DNA of 6,909 nucleotides from Bacteroidota bacterium (GTDB taxonomy: Bacteria > Bacteroidota > Bacteroidia > Bacteroidales > UBA1556), in NCBI GenBank assembly GCA_003648395.1, contig QMPB01000236.1, positions 1 to 6,909 of the forward strand. The letters are read 5' to 3'. The notes beneath the pieces are model-generated. The model was given only the letters and a program-made list of their open reading frames with translations. It had not been told where the DNA came from and did not search any database. Numbering within the stretch: the first letter of the stretch is position 1; every line of letters begins with the position of its first letter. Below, one piece after another: positions 1 to 4,981 of this stretch. The position numbers and the translations under genes are program-made.

Positions 1-534
1 TAATACTTGAAATCCAAATGAATGATTTTTATTGGCATTATAGTGAACTTCAGCACCTGTAAGAAAGTTGTCTGCCATCTCTATAATATCAGAATACTCG
101 TAGATGTCTATTGGATTTAAGTCAAATTCATATCCACCCCAGTCGGCATAAGTTTTACCAAAAGTAAATTGCCATTTCTCTGATAAATCAAAGCGGAGGT
201 ATGCAAAATCAACACCTTTAATAATCTTGTCGATAGATTGTGGTTCAAAATCACTAGTATATCGATGACGAAAGCGGAAGAATACTTTCTCGTGTACATA
301 GCCTTTGAATTCAAGTCTAAATTGCTCAAACTTAAATTTAGTTCCTAAGTATTCTCCATCTTGAAAGTCGTTTCTTAAGCCTGTTTGCATATTCATGATA
401 AGATCAACATTCTTTAAGAGCTCTTGTTTTTCGTTAGGAATTAGATTTCTATATGTAGTTGTGTCACCTTGTCGTTGCGAGTATCCAATATTAAAAATTA
501 GAGTTGCAAAAAATATAGTTAATAGAATTTTCAT
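1..534 (-). CDS. Outer-membrane porin, Porin_O_P (phosphate-selective porin-like) family, N-terminal part
   Basis: The reading frame is open from an ATG at 534-532 to the window edge, giving 178 residues; the C-terminal part is missing, since family members are usually about 350-450 residues. Residues 1-20 form a Sec signal peptide (MKILLTIFF..., ending GYSQ). The mature part alternates short polar and aromatic strands, as in a beta-barrel: KFEQFRLEFKGYV near 77, VFFRFRHRYT near 94, VDFAYLRFDL near 120 and WQFTFGKTYADWGGYEF near 134. The 'structure of the input, then FGK..., then GGYEF and a DNFLTGAEV segment' pattern is that of Bacteroidota porins annotated as OprP/OprO-like. The substrate cannot be read from sequence; many Bacteroidota members are not phosphate-specific. 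It lies in the same orientation as aspA-ansB, separated from ansB by 103 bp that hold a terminator-like hairpin. No Shine-Dalgarno is visible, which is normal for the phylum. The inferred role is diffusion of small anionic or polar solutes, perhaps asparagine or aspartate, to the periplasmic enzymes encoded upstream. Confidence 0.8.
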   Translation of the reverse strand, partial: MKILLTIFFATLIFNIGYSQRQGDTTTYRNLIPNEKQELLKNVDLIMNMQTGLRNDFQDGEYLGTKFKFEQFRLEFKGYVHEKVFFRFRHRYTSDFEPQSIDKIIKGVDFAYLRFDLSEKWQFTFGKTYADWGGYEFDLNPIDIYEYSDIIEMADNFLTGAEVHYNANKNHSFGFQVL

Positions 535-556
535 ATGTTAATTATTTGAGATTTAT

Positions 557-626
557 AAAAAAAACAATACCAATTTGAAACCTGATAGACTTTTATATTG
601 ATTTATCGATGATTCCAAATTGGTAT
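557..626 (-). terminator. Intrinsic terminator-like hairpin between ansB and the porin gene
   Basis: Read on the minus strand, an 11-bp perfect inverted repeat (ATACCAATTTG at 626-616 is the complement partner of 577-567) is followed two bases later by eight consecutive T residues (564-557). This is the layout of a rho-independent terminator, though the 38-nt loop is long and the stem is AT-rich. It starts 12 bases after the ansB stop. Only 22 bases separate the T-run from the porin ATG, so there is no room for a separate porin promoter after the hairpin. It could be a leaky terminator or attenuator lowering porin expression relative to the enzymes, or a processing/stabilising hairpin. Confidence 0.6.
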
Positions 627-637
627 AAATATTTATT

Positions 638-1717
638 TTAATACTTAATAAAAAGTTCTTGCAATTTTTCTCTGCTCATATCTTTATCTTTATGTAGGGC
701 TAGCATTAACAGTATTCTAGCTTTTTGAGGGTTTAGCTCATCTGAGGAAACAGTTCCATAATCAGTATCAACTACTTCGCCATGAATTAAAACTGCACCA
801 ACAGGAACACGAGTAGCTCGTACAACAGGAATTCCTGCAGCGGTAGCTTTTTTAGCAGCCTCTAATGTTCCTTTATTCATATTACCATCACCTACACCGG
901 CAATAATAATTCCCTTTGCTCCTGCCTTAATCATAATATCAATTAGGTCTGTTGACATATCAGCACAACCATAAACAATATCAACACGAGGTAACTCCTT
1001 TACTCCTTTTATTGAGAATTCACTATTTACAGTATGAATACCATGTGGTTGATGAAAAAACTCAACAAGTCCAAAATTAACTGTTCCCATTTGACCATGT
1101 TCAGGAGCCATAAATGCCTGAACAGGAGTGGTAAGCATTTTTTTAACTGAATGGGCTGAAAGTATTGCATCATTTATTACTACCAAAACACCTTTGCCTT
1201 TGGCAGCATCACTGATTGCAACGGCAACGCCATTATATAGATTTAATGGTCCATCAGCACTTAATGCTGTGGAAGGACGCATAGATGAAACCAATATAAC
1301 AGGTTTATCACTTTTTACTGTAAGATTTAGAAAAAAGGCTGTTTCCTCCTGTGTATCTGTACCATGGGTAATTACAATCCCATCTACTGTATCAGTAGCT
1401 AGTAGCTCATTAATTCGATTGGCGAGAATCAACCATACTTCAACACTCATATCCTGTGAACCTACATTTGCTGTTTGTTCACCTGTTAAATTAGCCAGCT
1501 TTCGGATATTTGGTACTGCATCTATCATTTCACCTATTCGAACCTGACCAGCAGTATAACTTGATCCAGTAGAGCTTGATCCAGTTCCGGCGATAGTACC
1601 ACCAGTTGCTAACACTATAATATTTTTAAGTTCTTTGTCTTGCGAATAACCACTAACAGTCATTACTGCAGTTAATAGAACTACTAAAAAGCTTTTTAAG
1701 AATAATCTTGTTTTCAT
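638..1717 (-). CDS. ansB: Type II L-asparaginase, exported (periplasmic)
   Basis: This 359-residue enzyme should hydrolyse L-asparagine to L-aspartate and ammonia. Residues 1-26 form a Sec signal peptide (KTR, then a hydrophobic stretch, then SGYSQ before DKEL), so it should act in the periplasm. All catalytic residues known from E. coli AnsB have counterparts: nucleophile Thr41 in TGGTIAG, Tyr54, Ser87-Gln88 in GSQD, Thr120-Asp121 in HGTDTQEET, Lys193, and Glu314 in the C-terminal domain, with the NPQKAR motif near 329. Mature length matches the family (about 330). The E. coli disulfide (Cys77-Cys105) is absent: the second position is Ser136 and the only cysteine is Cys251. The ATG is preceded by an A/T-rich leader without Shine-Dalgarno. 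The gene follows aspA by 30 bp, so the two are almost certainly co-transcribed, and AnsB makes the substrate of that enzyme. Some glutaminase activity is possible and cannot be excluded from sequence. Confidence 0.95.
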   Translation of the reverse strand: MKTRLFLKSFLVVLLTAVMTVSGYSQDKELKNIIVLATGGTIAGTGSSSTGSSYTAGQVRIGEMIDAVPNIRKLANLTGEQTANVGSQDMSVEVWLILANRINELLATDTVDGIVITHGTDTQEETAFFLNLTVKSDKPVILVSSMRPSTALSADGPLNLYNGVAVAISDAAKGKGVLVVINDAILSAHSVKKMLTTPVQAFMAPEHGQMGTVNFGLVEFFHQPHGIHTVNSEFSIKGVKELPRVDIVYGCADMSTDLIDIMIKAGAKGIIIAGVGDGNMNKGTLEAAKKATAAGIPVVRATRVPVGAVLIHGEVVDTDYGTVSSDELNPQKARILLMLALHKDKDMSREKLQELFIKY

Positions 1718-1747
1718 AATAATTTAGTTTGTTTAATATTGAATTAT

Positions 1748-3235
1748 TTATTTATTTTTGTATTTAGATTTATCAAGACCAGTCATATTTTCTGGTGATA
1801 ATATTTCTTGAATTTGTTCTTCTGTTAATAAATTCTTTTCACGAACAAGCTCAAGAATTCCTTTTCCCGTTTCCATTGATTCTTTTGCTAATTCATCACC
1901 AACATGATGCCCTAATACAGGGTTTAAAGCAGTTACAATTCCAATGGTTGTTTCCATATTCCTTTTATGTACCTCTTCATTTATTGTAATACCACTCACA
2001 CATTGTTCGCGGAAGGTTTTCATGGTATTAGTCAATAATTTTTGCGACTCAAAAATTGTTAGTCCAACAACTGGCTCGTAAGCATTTAATTGCAAATCAC
2101 CATCAGAAGCTGCAATATTTACTGTTACATCATTACCTATAACTCGGTAGCTAACCAATGCCATTAATTCTGGTATTACAGGATTTACTTTACCAGGCAT
2201 TATTGAAGAGCCAGGTTGGCGTGGAGGTAAGTTTATTTCAAATATGCCATTTCTTGGGCCTGACGATAGAATAATTAGGTCGTTGGAAATTTTAGATAAT
2301 GTAGTTGCCATGGTTTTTAATGCCGATGAGTAAACTACAAATGAATGCAGACTAGAAGTAGCAGCAATCATATCGTCAGCATTTACAAACTCAAATCCTG
2401 ATGCTTTGTTTAAATGCTTTATTACATAAGTATCATATCCTTTTGGAGCGTTTAATCCTGTTCCAATAGCAGTGCCACCCATATTTAAGGTTAATAATGC
2501 ACTGCTGGCAAATTTTAGATTTGCTATATCCCATTCAAGCATAGATGCATAAGAATGAAACTCTTGCCCAACGGTCATAGGTACTGCATCCTGCAACTCA
2601 GTTCTTCCCATTTTTACCACTTCAAGATATTTATTGCCTAATACCCTAAATTCTTTAGCTAGTAAGCTAAGCTGTTCAGTTAGTCTAGTATTATGCAGAA
2701 GCATGGTAAGTTTTAATGATGTTGGATATGTATCATTTGTTGATTGAGACATATTTATTTCATCATTTGGAGAAATTTTATCATATTCTCCAATTTTAAA
2801 TCCTGCCTTTTCAAGAGCAATATTTGCAATTACTTCATTTGCATTCATATTGGTAGAAGTTCCAGCTCCTCCTTGGTATAAATCAATTCTGAATTGATTA
2901 ATATAGTTTCCATTTATTAATTCCATACAGCCAGGCTCAATTAGTTTAAGCATTTCTGGCTTCATTTTACCAGCTTCTGTATTCGCTTGTGCTGCTGCTA
3001 ACTTAATCATTCCCCAAGCTTTCATAAAATCAGGATAATCATTGATATACTGTCCTGAAACTTGAAAGTTTTCCATAGCTCGCGCAGCTTGTGCTCCATA
3101 ATAGGCATCAGTTGGAACTTTTACGTCTCCAAGCAAATCTTTTTCTATACGGTACTCTTGAGCCCAAGCTGTTGAAATTGTGCTTCCTAATGTTAGAAAG
3201 GTTAATAGTACTATTAGTAGTGTTTTTCTGTTCAT
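1748..3235 (-). CDS. aspA: Aspartate ammonia-lyase (aspartase) with a Sec signal peptide
   Basis: This 495-residue protein belongs to the fumarase/aspartase superfamily and should catalyse L-aspartate to fumarate plus ammonia. Family motifs are intact: YQGGAGTSTNMN (120-131), QSTND (164-168), GRTELQDAVPM (210-220) and the signature GSSIMPGKVNP (342-352), with catalytic Ser343, Lys349 and Asn351. The valine in QDAVP favours aspartase over fumarase (usually QDATP). These positions match Bacillus AspB numbering with a constant offset of 25, so a full-length enzyme follows an added N-terminus. That addition is a textbook Sec signal: NRK, a hydrophobic core (LLIVLLTFLTLG), then AWA before QEYRIEKDLLG. 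Only two cysteines remain (103, 412), far fewer than in E. coli AspA, which fits an exported protein. The substrate-contacting residue that is His188 in AspB and Gln in E. coli is Glu213 here. I chose the ATG at 3235; a TTG three codons earlier would add only MII and leave the signal intact. The gene is first in an operon with ansB. Confidence 0.92.
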   Translation of the reverse strand: MNRKTLLIVLLTFLTLGSTISTAWAQEYRIEKDLLGDVKVPTDAYYGAQAARAMENFQVSGQYINDYPDFMKAWGMIKLAAAQANTEAGKMKPEMLKLIEPGCMELINGNYINQFRIDLYQGGAGTSTNMNANEVIANIALEKAGFKIGEYDKISPNDEINMSQSTNDTYPTSLKLTMLLHNTRLTEQLSLLAKEFRVLGNKYLEVVKMGRTELQDAVPMTVGQEFHSYASMLEWDIANLKFASSALLTLNMGGTAIGTGLNAPKGYDTYVIKHLNKASGFEFVNADDMIAATSSLHSFVVYSSALKTMATTLSKISNDLIILSSGPRNGIFEINLPPRQPGSSIMPGKVNPVIPELMALVSYRVIGNDVTVNIAASDGDLQLNAYEPVVGLTIFESQKLLTNTMKTFREQCVSGITINEEVHKRNMETTIGIVTALNPVLGHHVGDELAKESMETGKGILELVREKNLLTEEQIQEILSPENMTGLDKSKYKNK

Positions 3236-3277
3236 AATAATCAAATTAATTGTCTGTAAATATTGGTTTGTAAAATA

Positions 3278-3287
3278 GGCTTAAGCC
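3278..3287. promoter_or_regulatory. 10-bp perfect palindrome GGCTTAAGCC upstream of aspA
   Basis: GGCTTAAGCC is a perfect palindrome 42 bases before the aspA ATG. It is a local GC-rich island in a very AT-rich leader. It could be a binding site for a dimeric regulator or a small feature of the leader. No known motif was recognised, and a palindrome of this length can occur by chance. Confidence 0.25.
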
Positions 3288-3397
3288 ATATATGATATTT
3301 CCTGTAATTAGAGATTAGTTTTACTATTAAACTATTCTGTAAATTATTTATATGGATGATATTTTCTTGAAACAATAGGTATTTTAATGGCTGTAGA

Positions 3398-3435
3398 GGT
3401 ATATATATAGTGTGTAAATACAATAAATATATACC
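3398..3435. repeat. 9-bp inverted repeat (GGTATATAT / ATATATACC) in the aspA upstream region
   Basis: GGTATATAT at 3398-3406 is the exact reverse complement of ATATATACC at 3427-3435, with a 20-base spacer. On the minus strand no T-run follows, so it is not a convincing terminator for the regulator gene. It may be an operator, a weak hairpin in a long leader, or a by-product of the alternating AT composition. Confidence 0.3.
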
Positions 3436-3547
3436 CAAGAATTAATAAGATAAGCAAAGTAGTATACATCATATATTTTGAATTAAGCATTAGAATACTT
3501 AAAAGCAAAAGTAGAACTTATTAGGTTATTCTTTAGTGTATATTAGT

Positions 3548-3566
3548 GGACAAAAGGCGGACAAAA
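3548..3566. promoter_or_regulatory. Direct repeat GGACAAAA x2, 11-bp period (possible operator)
   Basis: GGACAAAA occurs at 3548-3555 and again at 3559-3566, separated by GGC, so the period is 11 bp, about one helical turn. On the minus strand it reads TTTTGTCC-GCC-TTTTGTCC. It lies about 55 bases after the regulator stop and 310 bases before aspA. Tandem half-sites on one face of the helix suit HTH regulators bound as direct-repeat dimers. Which protein binds it, if any, is unknown. Confidence 0.35.
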
Positions 3567-3619
3567 AATATTAGCACTATTTTTATTATAATTCATGTGA
3601 ATAGGGAGCATTCTTAAGC

Positions 3620-4981
3620 TTAGAATTGTGCAATATAGTCTTCGAGCGAATCTATAGATTCTAGTTCCAATTTCTTCCGGATTCTATATCGGCTCTTTTT
3701 AATGCCTTCATTGGTGATATTCAATACTGAAGATATTTGATGTGAGGAAAGATGTATTCGCAAATAAGCACAAAATTTAAGCTCTGATTTTGATAAAGTA
3801 GGATGTGTTTCTTTAAGATTTATGAAAAAATTCTTATGTACTTTGGTAAAGCGTAATCTAAAAATCTCCCAATTATCTTGCTCTGTACTTTGAGTTTTTA
3901 ATTTATTTTGTATACCAACAAGTTCGTTATATAAATCTGTACCTATGTGCTTTACTAGGAGTTTGTCGATATTTTTTAATGCCGCTTCTATTACCTTAGA
4001 TGTCTTGCTTCTTTCGAGTGCAGTAGTAATTAATTCTCTCTCGTTTGATTCAAGCAATTCTGTAGACTTGAGCTTTTCTTGCTCTTGTAGTTTCTGCTTT
4101 TTCTCCAGCAAAATTTGATATGATAAATCCATTCCAATGCCCATAAAATAGGTTTTACCATTATCTTCTAATAGATACCCATCAAATAAATACGGAATAG
4201 GTCTCCCGTCTTTAGTGTTAAAAATTGCTGTTACTTGTGCACTACCAGTAGTGAAGATCTGTTGTATTGCCTTTTCAACCTTGGCATATTCTTTTTGATT
4301 GGTGAAGGTTTGATAAGGCTGCATATTTAGAAGCTCATTTTTTGAATAACCTAGTTTAGTTTCAAAATTATTATTCCATCTTTTAATATAGAATTTATTG
4401 TCAACCTTTTCGCATAAATAAAATATGCCTGGCAGATTATTAATAAGTATATTATTGAATTCTTTAGAGTTAATAAAGTGATTTTCTTGCAGTTCTATTT
4501 TAGCTTGATTCAGTCGTTCAATTTTATTAAAATAATCTTGCAATTGACTTTTTAGCAAGTTCATTTTAGTTATACGACCTTTTAACTCATTCTTATCATT
4601 ATGTATTTCATTAATATTGATTAAAATACCAGCCATATACTCTACACCAGCAACAATCACTACCGAGCGCATTGCAAGGCAAGGAATTATTCGCCCATAT
4701 TTTGTCTGTATACAATATTCTATAACTCTTTCTTTGTCATCTCCATCAACAATAAGTTCAATAAATTTATTGGCAACCCTGTCTTTATCATCTTTACAAA
4801 TTAGCTCAGTAACAAATTTGTTTTTTAATTCTTTTGCAGAATATTCCAAAAGAATTTCAATATTCTTATTCCAAGTCAAAAGTTTACCTTCTTTAGAAAA
4901 GATATAAGCATGCTCAGGCATGCCTTTTATTATCATTTCTAAAGAGAAAGGCACTCCATTAAGGGTATCTTGTTGACTCAT
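3620..4981 (-). CDS. PAS-PAS one-component transcriptional regulator with C-terminal LuxR-like HTH
   Basis: This 453-residue protein has no signal peptide or membrane segment and should be cytoplasmic. The first PAS-like domain spans about 15-123 (AYIFSKEGKLLTWNKN, then a K.G..IPC core). A helical, probably coiled-coil linker covers about 125-168. A second PAS-like domain spans about 176-288 (GIFYL, RWNNNFETKLGYS, TKDGRPIPYLFDG, then a GIGMDLS end). A long charged helix (290-365) connects to the C-terminal DNA-binding domain at about 385-450, with NFFINLKETHPTLSKSELKFCAYLR followed by the recognition part SSHQISSVLNITNEGIKKSRYRIRKKL. That last pattern is typical of Bacteroidota LuxR-like regulators. 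No histidine kinase or receiver domain is present, so it is a one-component sensor; its ligand is unknown. It lies in the same orientation directly upstream of the aspA control region, which makes aspA-ansB a plausible target, not a proven one. The ATG at 4981 starts just before the first PAS domain; no Shine-Dalgarno is visible. Confidence 0.85.
   Translation of the reverse strand: MSQQDTLNGVPFSLEMIIKGMPEHAYIFSKEGKLLTWNKNIEILLEYSAKELKNKFVTELICKDDKDRVANKFIELIVDGDDKERVIEYCIQTKYGRIIPCLAMRSVVIVAGVEYMAGILININEIHNDKNELKGRITKMNLLKSQLQDYFNKIERLNQAKIELQENHFINSKEFNNILINNLPGIFYLCEKVDNKFYIKRWNNNFETKLGYSKNELLNMQPYQTFTNQKEYAKVEKAIQQIFTTGSAQVTAIFNTKDGRPIPYLFDGYLLEDNGKTYFMGIGMDLSYQILLEKKQKLQEQEKLKSTELLESNERELITTALERSKTSKVIEAALKNIDKLLVKHIGTDLYNELVGIQNKLKTQSTEQDNWEIFRLRFTKVHKNFFINLKETHPTLSKSELKFCAYLRIHLSSHQISSVLNITNEGIKKSRYRIRKKLELESIDSLEDYIAQF

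What the first reader, a model, noticed from the sequence alone, without database searches (positions are those of the whole stretch)
638..3235. Two-step asparagine-to-fumarate pathway predicted to lie entirely in the periplasm
aspA and ansB are 30 bp apart, in one apparent operon, and both encode complete enzymes preceded by clear Sec signal peptides. Type II asparaginases are known to be periplasmic; aspartase is normally cytoplasmic. Co-export would let asparagine be deaminated twice before crossing the inner membrane, producing fumarate outside. Inference: the fumarate is then taken up by a Dcu-type antiporter in exchange for succinate and used as electron acceptor, so amino acid uptake is replaced by fumarate uptake and ammonia release.
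Basis: partly seen in the sequence, partly recalled or inferred. Interest (0 to 1): 0.75.

Follow-up and report, generated by a model that had tools for sequence, protein, structure and literature searches.

The report
Exported aspartase beside exported asparaginase
A group of bacteria appears to break down asparagine all the way to fumarate outside the inner membrane, because a normally internal enzyme, aspartase, has gained an export signal and travels with the asparaginase that feeds it.

Summary
AspA (1748-3235, minus strand) and AnsB (638-1717, minus strand) are intact, 30 bp apart, each with a 25-residue Sec leader ending in a small residue before Gln (Bacteroidetes 'Q-rule').

It is not a local oddity. 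Of 65 full-length Bacteroidota AspAs, 27 have Glu where the other 38 and E. coli have Gln (Q191; Bacillus AspB H188, a substrate contact). The 26 of those 27 with readable N-termini all have a 20-25 residue leader before Gln; 0 of the 38 pass the leader rule. The 26 form one 100/100 clade. ansB lies within two genes in 26 of 30 loci; the other four contigs end too early.

A Dcu C4-dicarboxylate antiporter is next to aspA, or one gene away, in 13 of 30 loci, supporting the fumarate-uptake idea for the family. It is not shown for the window: the nearest genome has no detectable Dcu. Nothing was assayed, and the three exported AspAs tested fall below the curated aspA equivalog cutoff, so aspartate specificity is inferred. 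Five paper searches showed no exported aspartase in their capped listings. Verdict: a new variant of the known module (periplasmic AnsB, cytoplasmic AspA, DcuA) with AspA moved outside.

The parts
1748..3235 (-). aspA: exported aspartate ammonia-lyase, 495 aa including leader
   Evidence: NF008909 640.9 bits (cutoff 510); best solved relative 6wng, aligned over residues 26-485
3161..3235 (-). Sec signal peptide of AspA (25 aa), predicted SPI cleavage before Gln26
   Evidence: leader + Gln in 26 of 26 readable loci; Gln26 invariant in the 36 homologues aligned
2597..2599 (-). codon of Glu213 (aligns with E. coli AspA Gln191 and AspB His188), hallmark of the exported clade
   Evidence: Glu in 27 of 65 full-length Bacteroidota AspAs, Gln in the other 38 and E. 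coli; GRTE in all 360 database relatives listed
2732..2743 (-). STND motif (residues 165-168), substrate-binding in aspartases
   Evidence: Ser165, Thr166, Asn167 invariant in 36 aligned homologues; align with AspB 140-142
2180..2218 (-). SS loop QPGSSIMPGKVNP (residues 340-352) with the predicted catalytic Ser343 (AspB Ser318, role recalled)
638..1717 (-). ansB: type II (periplasmic) L-asparaginase, 359 aa
   Evidence: TIGR00520 410.2 bits (cutoff 314.3); best solved relative Wolinella 1wsa
1643..1717 (-). Sec signal peptide of AnsB (25 aa), predicted cleavage before Gln
1..534 (-). Porin_O_P outer-membrane porin, N-terminal 178 aa (gene runs off the window), N-terminus leader-like by eye
   Evidence: directly follows ansB in many relatives
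3620..4981 (-). PAS-PAS regulator with LuxR-like C-terminus, upstream of aspA; possible regulator (association weak)
   Evidence: PAS; GerE below its cutoff; same place in L001; a C-terminal fragment similar by eye precedes ansB in L117

Best explanation
Shown by sequence: aspA and ansB both carry cleavable-looking Sec signal peptides of the Bacteroidetes Q-rule type, and the exported AspA belongs to a distinct Bacteroidota clade that travels with ansB, a porin and often an inner-membrane dicarboxylate or glutamate carrier. Inferred: the porin admits Asn/Asp; AnsB deamidates Asn to Asp in the periplasm; exported AspA deaminates Asp to fumarate, so both ammonium ions are released outside the inner membrane. 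Fumarate then enters through a C4-dicarboxylate carrier (Dcu antiport with succinate where dcu is in the cluster, perhaps SLC13 or SDF carriers elsewhere). Inside, it is reduced to succinate in anaerobic members or used as carbon in aerobic ones. The likely gain is that ammonium never enters the cell: its loss pulls the near-equilibrium aspartase reaction (recalled) towards fumarate and allows an electroneutral fumarate/succinate exchange.
For: Leader plus Gln in 26 of 26 readable Glu-type AspAs, and 0 of 38 Gln-type AspAs passing the leader rule. Gln26 and Glu213 invariant in the 36 homologues aligned. A small residue|Gln junction before the mature start in 356 of the 357 listed database relatives where the anchor was found, 360 listed. 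One clade at 100/100. ansB within two genes in 26 of 30 loci, the other 4 contigs ending inside or within 0.5 kb of aspA; 0 of 38 for Gln-type AspAs, but 33 of those loci have flanks of at most about 1.5 kb. Dcu next to aspA in 12 and one gene away in 1 of 30 loci. A second aspartase without leader in 11 of 19 genomes. The other AspB substrate-contact residues are conserved. Sdh/Frd flavoprotein matched in 29 of 29 genomes, 27 over cutoff; flavocytochrome-c-type fumarate reductase over cutoff in 0 of 29, so reduction in the periplasm by that family is unlikely.
Against: No activity or localisation data. The three exported AspAs tested score below the curated aspA equivalog cutoff (579-620 against 681 bits), whereas four other Bacteroidota AspAs tested pass it at 716-759. 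Glu213 sits at a substrate-contacting position and could alter specificity. Dcu is undetected in 9 of 19 genomes, including the window's nearest relative; assemblies are of unknown completeness. TIGR01811 does not separate Frd from Sdh. Leaderless AspA can keep the same company: in Ancylomarina a leaderless aspA follows dcu-ansB-porin (L098). In passages on Ancylomarina euxinus strain M2P (not the genome strain) it is called a fermenter growing on pyruvate, glucose and casein; aspartate is in the list of substrates tested, but no result for it was in the passages I saw. The predicted model of AspA is only moderate (mean pLDDT 70.7).
Confidence: 0.7

Rival explanations
1. The exported protein is a lyase of the aspartase family with a changed substrate. 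The Gln/His to Glu change near the amine and carboxylate contacts adapts it to another amine or dicarboxylate, and its neighbour AnsB supplies or removes a related compound.
For: Glu213 throughout the clade at AspB His188, described as part of the carboxylate pocket and contacting the amine (PMC11744663, one passage); eight further clade-specific positions, e.g. E269A, D273S, R299I in E. coli numbering; three members below the equivalog cutoff.
Against: The other AspB substrate-contact residues examined are kept; the NF008909 aspartase subfamily cutoff is met by the three tested; the neighbour is asparaginase, whose product is aspartate; E. coli has Gln and Bacillus His there, so the position varies among aspartases.
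Confidence: 0.15
2. Both enzymes are exported, but the purpose is to release ammonium (nitrogen supply or acid neutralisation), and the fumarate is incidental.
For: Two ammonium per asparagine follow from the chemistry; in several loci the only carrier seen in the cluster is GltS, not Dcu (L004, L007, L008, L011, L016).
Against: Dcu stands next to aspA or one gene away in 13 of 30 loci, and these Dcu are of different groups (68-96% identical to L013 Dcu, 61% in L089, 44-46% in L088, L096, L097). A citrate/SLC13-type carrier follows the porin in L095 and L096. A DcaP-type porin precedes the genes in L090 and L091.
Confidence: 0.12
3. The leader is real but AspA has a non-metabolic surface role, as proposed for plasminogen-binding aspartase of Haemophilus (recalled, not looked up).
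For: Predicted exported location.
Against: Catalytic residues are conserved and the neighbours are metabolic; the organisms named are mostly marine MAG-type records or, mostly environmental genera (habitats recalled).
Confidence: 0.03

Closest known systems
Actinobacillus succinogenes Asuc_0140-0142 (periplasmic AnsB, cytoplasmic AspA, DcuA), PMC10634366
   Same: Same three functions in one cluster; asparagine and aspartate proposed to feed fumarate respiration (passages read).
   Different: There AspA is placed in the cytoplasm and DcuA imports aspartate; here AspA carries a signal peptide, so fumarate rather than aspartate would cross the inner membrane.
E. coli aspA-dcuA
   Same: AspA homologue (alignment) beside a Dcu carrier (annotated region).
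   Different: E. coli AspA has no leader and has Gln191; Dcu of the exported loci is 35-43% identical to E. coli DcuA or DcuB.
Leaderless dcu-ansB-porin-aspA cluster in the same Ancylomarina euxinus genome (L098)
   Same: Same gene set in one neighbourhood.
   Different: AspA is leaderless with Gln at the key position; its Dcu is 51% identical to L013 Dcu.
Bacteroidetes Q-rule exported proteins (PMC5837995)
   Same: Small residue|Gln cleavage junction, described as typical of SPI substrates in the phylum (passages read).
   Different: An aspartase as substrate was not mentioned in the passages I read; the whole text and supplements were not searched for one.

Membership tests
Aspartate ammonia-lyase (AspA) | Curated NF008909 subfamily score (cutoff 510) | tested here: met
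   640.9 bits; 662.3 and 648.5 for two second-group members
Aspartate ammonia-lyase (AspA) | Curated TIGR00839 aspA equivalog score (cutoff 681.2) | tested here: not met
   578.7, 620.4 and 603.3; four other Bacteroidota AspAs score 716-759
Aspartate ammonia-lyase (AspA) | Active-site set of AspB: T101, S140, T141, N142, T187, H188, S318, K324, N326 (set recalled) | tested here: inconclusive
   All matched except H188, which is Glu213 (E. coli has Gln191)
Aspartate ammonia-lyase (AspA) | Catalyses L-Asp to fumarate + NH4+ | not testable with these tools
   no assay
Class II fumarase (FumC) | TIGR00979 equivalog score (cutoff 664.75) | tested here: not met
   444.8 bits
Type II L-asparaginase | TIGR00520 subfamily score (cutoff 314.3) and Sec leader | tested here: met
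   410.2 bits; leader
Type II L-asparaginase | NF008304 L-asparaginase 2 equivalog score (cutoff 506) | tested here: not met
   414.1 bits
Bacteroidetes Q-rule SPI substrate | Sec leader with Gln at +1 | tested here: met
   by my own rule and not SignalP; pyroglutamate itself not testable here
AnsB-AspA-Dcu fumarate respiration module | Cytoplasmic AspA | tested here: not met
   predicted leader on AspA
AnsB-AspA-Dcu fumarate respiration module | Dcu carrier in the same cluster | tested here: inconclusive
   13 of 30 loci; not in the window, and not detected in its nearest genome
AnsB-AspA-Dcu fumarate respiration module | Fumarate reductase present | tested here: inconclusive
   TIGR01811 matched in 29 of 29 genomes, 27 over cutoff; G001 and G007 only in pieces below it; the model does not separate Frd from Sdh

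The most novel reading that the evidence does not exclude
A widespread, perhaps once-evolved subfamily of aspartases across Bacteroidota has been moved into the periplasm with an active-site Gln-to-Glu change, so that the periplasm becomes the compartment where asparagine is fully deaminated. The cell imports fumarate and leaves nitrogen outside, a route opposite to the aspartate-import nitrogen shuttle of enterobacteria (recalled); the Glu may be an adaptation of the chemistry to that compartment.
Probability: 0.5. Interest if true: 0.75.

Novelty: new variant of a known kind. Interest (0 to 1): 0.6.

Why it matters
Aspartase is generally treated as a cytoplasmic enzyme, and the described asparagine-fed fumarate respiration (PMC10634366) has aspartate as the species imported. 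If a Bacteroidota group does the second deamination outside, metabolic models that place every annotated aspartate ammonia-lyase inside would be wrong for them in transport cost, charge and nitrogen balance and ammonium release, which may matter for organic-nitrogen turnover in the waters and sediments where they live. Some database entries whose annotated start lies inside the leader hide the signal. The two AspA operons in a cultured organism (Ancylomarina euxinus) make the compartment question directly testable, and Glu213 offers a one-residue hypothesis about aspartase chemistry.

Tried and rejected
Considered and rejected: chance leader or wrong start (leader and Gln in 26 of 26 readable loci); lipoprotein anchoring (the script's lipobox pattern flagged no exported AspA; it flagged one AnsB, L086); fumarase misannotation (FumC equivalog cutoff not met); reduction in the periplasm by flavocytochrome-c-type fumarate reductase (0 of 29 over cutoff; matches below cutoff in 25 of 29 were not examined).

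Led nowhere: Bacteroidetes -33/-7 promoter pattern (recalled; 2 matches, at least 2 in 17 of 200 shuffles, neither upstream of aspA); sigma-70 and terminator scan of 1-3700 (17 found against 18.9 expected; 0 terminators against 1.7); no solved structure by sequence for Dcu or GltS; AlphaFold model moderate (mean pLDDT 70.7) with segment 210-218 under 50, so it was not used to judge Glu213; its fold search returned aspartases and fumarases with rmsd of 10-12 A; the Black Sea paper gave no aspartate or asparagine growth result for Ancylomarina in the passages seen.

Not tested: exported aspartases outside Bacteroidota. In the phylum sample 26 of 56 matched genomes had no fetched locus and were judged by identity and alignment start only; G185 (45%, aligned from residue 8) was not read. 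Rows dropped before the 65-AspA count: fragments under 440 aa (such as L017, L018, L019, L042, L047) and duplicates; L016 was dropped from the leader count, the tree and the residue comparison. The Glu type and the Gln type were defined by that residue, and the leader was then tested on each.
Full report
OBSERVATION. The window holds, on the minus strand and in order of transcription, a GH92 fragment, a PAS-PAS regulator with a LuxR-like C-terminus (4981-3620; GerE match below its cutoff), aspA (3235-1748), ansB (1717-638) and the first 178 residues of a Porin_O_P porin (534-1). AspA and AnsB are complete and 30 bp apart. AspA aligns over residues 26-485 or nearly so with solved aspartases from Elizabethkingia (6wng), E. 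coli (1jsw) and Bacillus (1j3u). AnsB aligns from residue 33 with the Wolinella asparaginase (1wsa, organism recalled). The residues left over at both N-termini are the leaders.

LEADERS. SignalP was not on hand. I compared 65 full-length, non-redundant Bacteroidota AspAs (440 aa or more; fragments and duplicates dropped), split by one active-site residue into 27 with Glu and 38 with Gln. A rule of my own (positive n-region, a 10-residue hydrophobic core of mean Kyte-Doolittle 2.0 or more, small residues at -3 and -1, every candidate Met tried) accepted 25 of 27 of the Glu type, 25 of 25 AnsB and 17 of 17 porins (positive controls), and 0 of 38 of the Gln type, 0 of 14 Dcu and 0 of 7 GltS. In 4 of the 25 AnsB (L017, L056, L058, L059) the rule picked an internal Met and a doubtful site. 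The two AspA misses are L016, whose N-terminus holds masked bases, and L058, core 1.95. In the 26 readable Glu-type AspAs the last small-residue|Gln junction before the mature start leaves a leader of 20-25 residues in all 26; one, L011, has the less usual Thr before the Gln. Gln26 is invariant in the 36 homologues I aligned out of 120 listed. Gln after the cleavage site is the Bacteroidetes Q-rule (PMC5837995, passages read; PMC10653852, listing abstract only). Three protein searches each listed the best 120 of 8000 scored. In these 360, a small residue|Gln junction precedes the mature start in 356 of the 357 where the anchor was found; a leader of 15 or more residues with hydrophobic core was counted in 317 of 360. 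The 35 of the 43 others that were printed are mostly entries whose start lies inside the leader, or cores just under the limit.

A DISTINCT CLADE. Exported AspAs are found in 19 loci by one genome scan (three of them partial), in at least 7 of 395 genomes sampled across the phylum (26 of the 56 matched genomes were not read) and in 8 of 393 sampled in the order at E <= 1e-158, four of them already known from the first scan. A tree of 26 exported and 38 other Bacteroidota AspAs plus E. coli AspA puts the exported ones on one side of a 100/100 branch; the tree is unrooted, and the tool warns that long branches meet at that split. 11 of 19 related genomes also hold a second aspartase without leader at 47-53% identity: 5 plain, 5 long forms with an N-terminal extension, 1 fragment. 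In the other 8 only fumarase-like matches (36-39%, 7 genomes) or none (1 genome) were seen. Named carriers among listed database relatives include Flavobacterium anhuiense, F. ginsenosidimutans, Solitalea lacus, Flavihumibacter solisilvae, Chryseolinea serpens and Mariniradius saccharolyticus.

ACTIVE SITE. T126, S165, T166, N167, T212, S343, S344, K349 and N351, which align with AspB T101, S140, T141, N142, T187, S318, S319, K324 and N326, are invariant in the 36 aligned homologues. Among all 360 listed, 359 hold QGGAGT, 354 hold [SG]QSTND and 357 hold GSSIMPGKVNP; the exceptions were not examined. One position differs: Glu213 aligns with AspB His188 and E. coli Gln191. The 27 Glu-type and 38 Gln-type AspAs coincide with exported and not exported, and GRTE occurs in all 360 listed relatives. 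Eight further positions separate 26 exported from 39 others. [quoted passage not shown] The change may tune or alter specificity; this was not tested. Consistent with divergence, the three exported members scanned score 579-620 bits on the aspA equivalog model (cutoff 681), while four other Bacteroidota AspAs score 716-759.

NEIGHBOURS. Of 30 loci (window, L001-L019, L088-L097), ansB lies within two genes of exported aspA in 26. The other four (L005, L010, L018, L019) end inside or within 0.5 kb of aspA, and a further contig of the L018 genome continues aspA-ansB-porin-gltS. Around 38 Gln-type AspAs, ansB was seen in 0, but 33 of those loci have flanks of at most about 1.5 kb, so this control is narrow; and in the Ancylomarina genome a leaderless aspA lies downstream of dcu-ansB-porin (L098), so leaderless AspA can have the same company. 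Dcu is next to exported aspA in 12 loci (L005, L006, L009, L012-L015, L017, L019, L089, L096, L097) and one gene away in L088, 13 of 30 in all. The family was checked by Pfam on L013 and NCBIfam on L013 and L009, and by a PF03605 search of the 19 genomes, which found Dcu in 10, in 9 of them beside the exported aspA; the tenth, G003, has it on another short contig. GltS lies in the cluster in 8 of the first 19 loci (Pfam and NCBIfam on L013). Citrate/SLC13-type carriers follow the porin in L095 and L096, and DcaP-type porins precede the genes in L090 and L091; L092 and L093 have a similar ORF, not scanned. DcaP-family porins are reported as required for carboxylic acid catabolism in Acinetobacter (PMC12338516, title and listing abstract only).

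FATE OF FUMARATE. A TIGR01811 flavoprotein (Sdh/Frd) is matched in 29 of 29 genomes, 27 over cutoff; G001 and G007 show only pieces below it. A flavocytochrome-c-type reductase passes its cutoff in 0 of 29, with matches below cutoff in 25. Uptake and reduction inside is therefore more likely than reduction in the periplasm, by inference. In the window's nearest genome, G001, Dcu and GltS were not found, but two SLC13 and one SDF carrier were; its completeness is unknown. So the Dcu step is supported for part of the family and open for this organism.

COMPARISON. The nearest described system is the A. succinogenes cluster of periplasmic AnsB, cytoplasmic AspA and DcuA (PMC10634366, passages). 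The present system would work like it with AspA moved outside. Ten paper searches were made. Five of them (9, 20, 44, 64, 68) could have shown a non-cytoplasmic aspartase; their listings (30 of 44, 20 of 31, 7 of 7, 12 of 64 and 12 of 112 papers) show none by title and start of abstract. One paper, on Candida, holds the words 'secreted aspartase' and was not opened. The library lacks most subscription papers, so absence from print is not shown. That aspartase runs near equilibrium, and the enterobacterial nitrogen shuttle, are recalled.

SCORES (judgement). Export of AspA: about 0.93. Aspartate as substrate: about 0.8. Whole pathway with fumarate uptake: about 0.7. Interest 0.6.

Noticed in passing
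L100:7906-9765 and 20 similar loci (L038, L040, L043-L045, L064, L067, L070-L082): A third Bacteroidota AspA type of about 620 aa; the one scanned with Pfam (L100) has an N-terminal cyclic-nucleotide-binding domain fused to aspartase, suggesting a ligand-regulated aspartase. The others were judged by length and N-terminal likeness only.
   Followed up: partly
L009 and L098 (Ancylomarina euxinus): One genome carries both an exported dcu-aspA-ansB-porin operon and a leaderless dcu-ansB-porin-aspA cluster, a natural pair for comparison.
   Followed up: partly
window residues 291, 295, 321 of AspA (E. coli E269, D273, R299): Charged residues kept in 39 of 39 other AspAs are Ala, Ser and Ile in 25, 25 and 26 of 26 exported ones, together with Glu213; they may mark a lost salt-bridge or effector site.
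   Followed up: no
P0020, P0034, P0053, P0054, P0093 and others: Database entries of this clade start at a Met inside the signal peptide, so the export signal is invisible in the annotation.
   Followed up: partly
L002:7486-9681 and L008:1815-3932: A 705-731 aa protein with a leader-like N-terminus sits next to the exported aspA in two loci; the L002 copy matches no Pfam family.
   Followed up: no
L089:12539-16106: Malic enzyme and an Asp-Al_Ex family carrier lie near the exported genes, a possible onward route for the fumarate.
   Followed up: no
window 3620-4981; L117:2-334: A PAS/LuxR-like regulator lies upstream of the operon in the window and L001, and a C-terminal fragment similar by eye precedes ansB in L117.
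   Followed up: partly
P0243: Listed as Oscillatoria amoena but 93% identical to an AspA from a Cyclobacteriaceae MAG; possibly a contaminant of a cyanobacterial culture.
   Followed up: no
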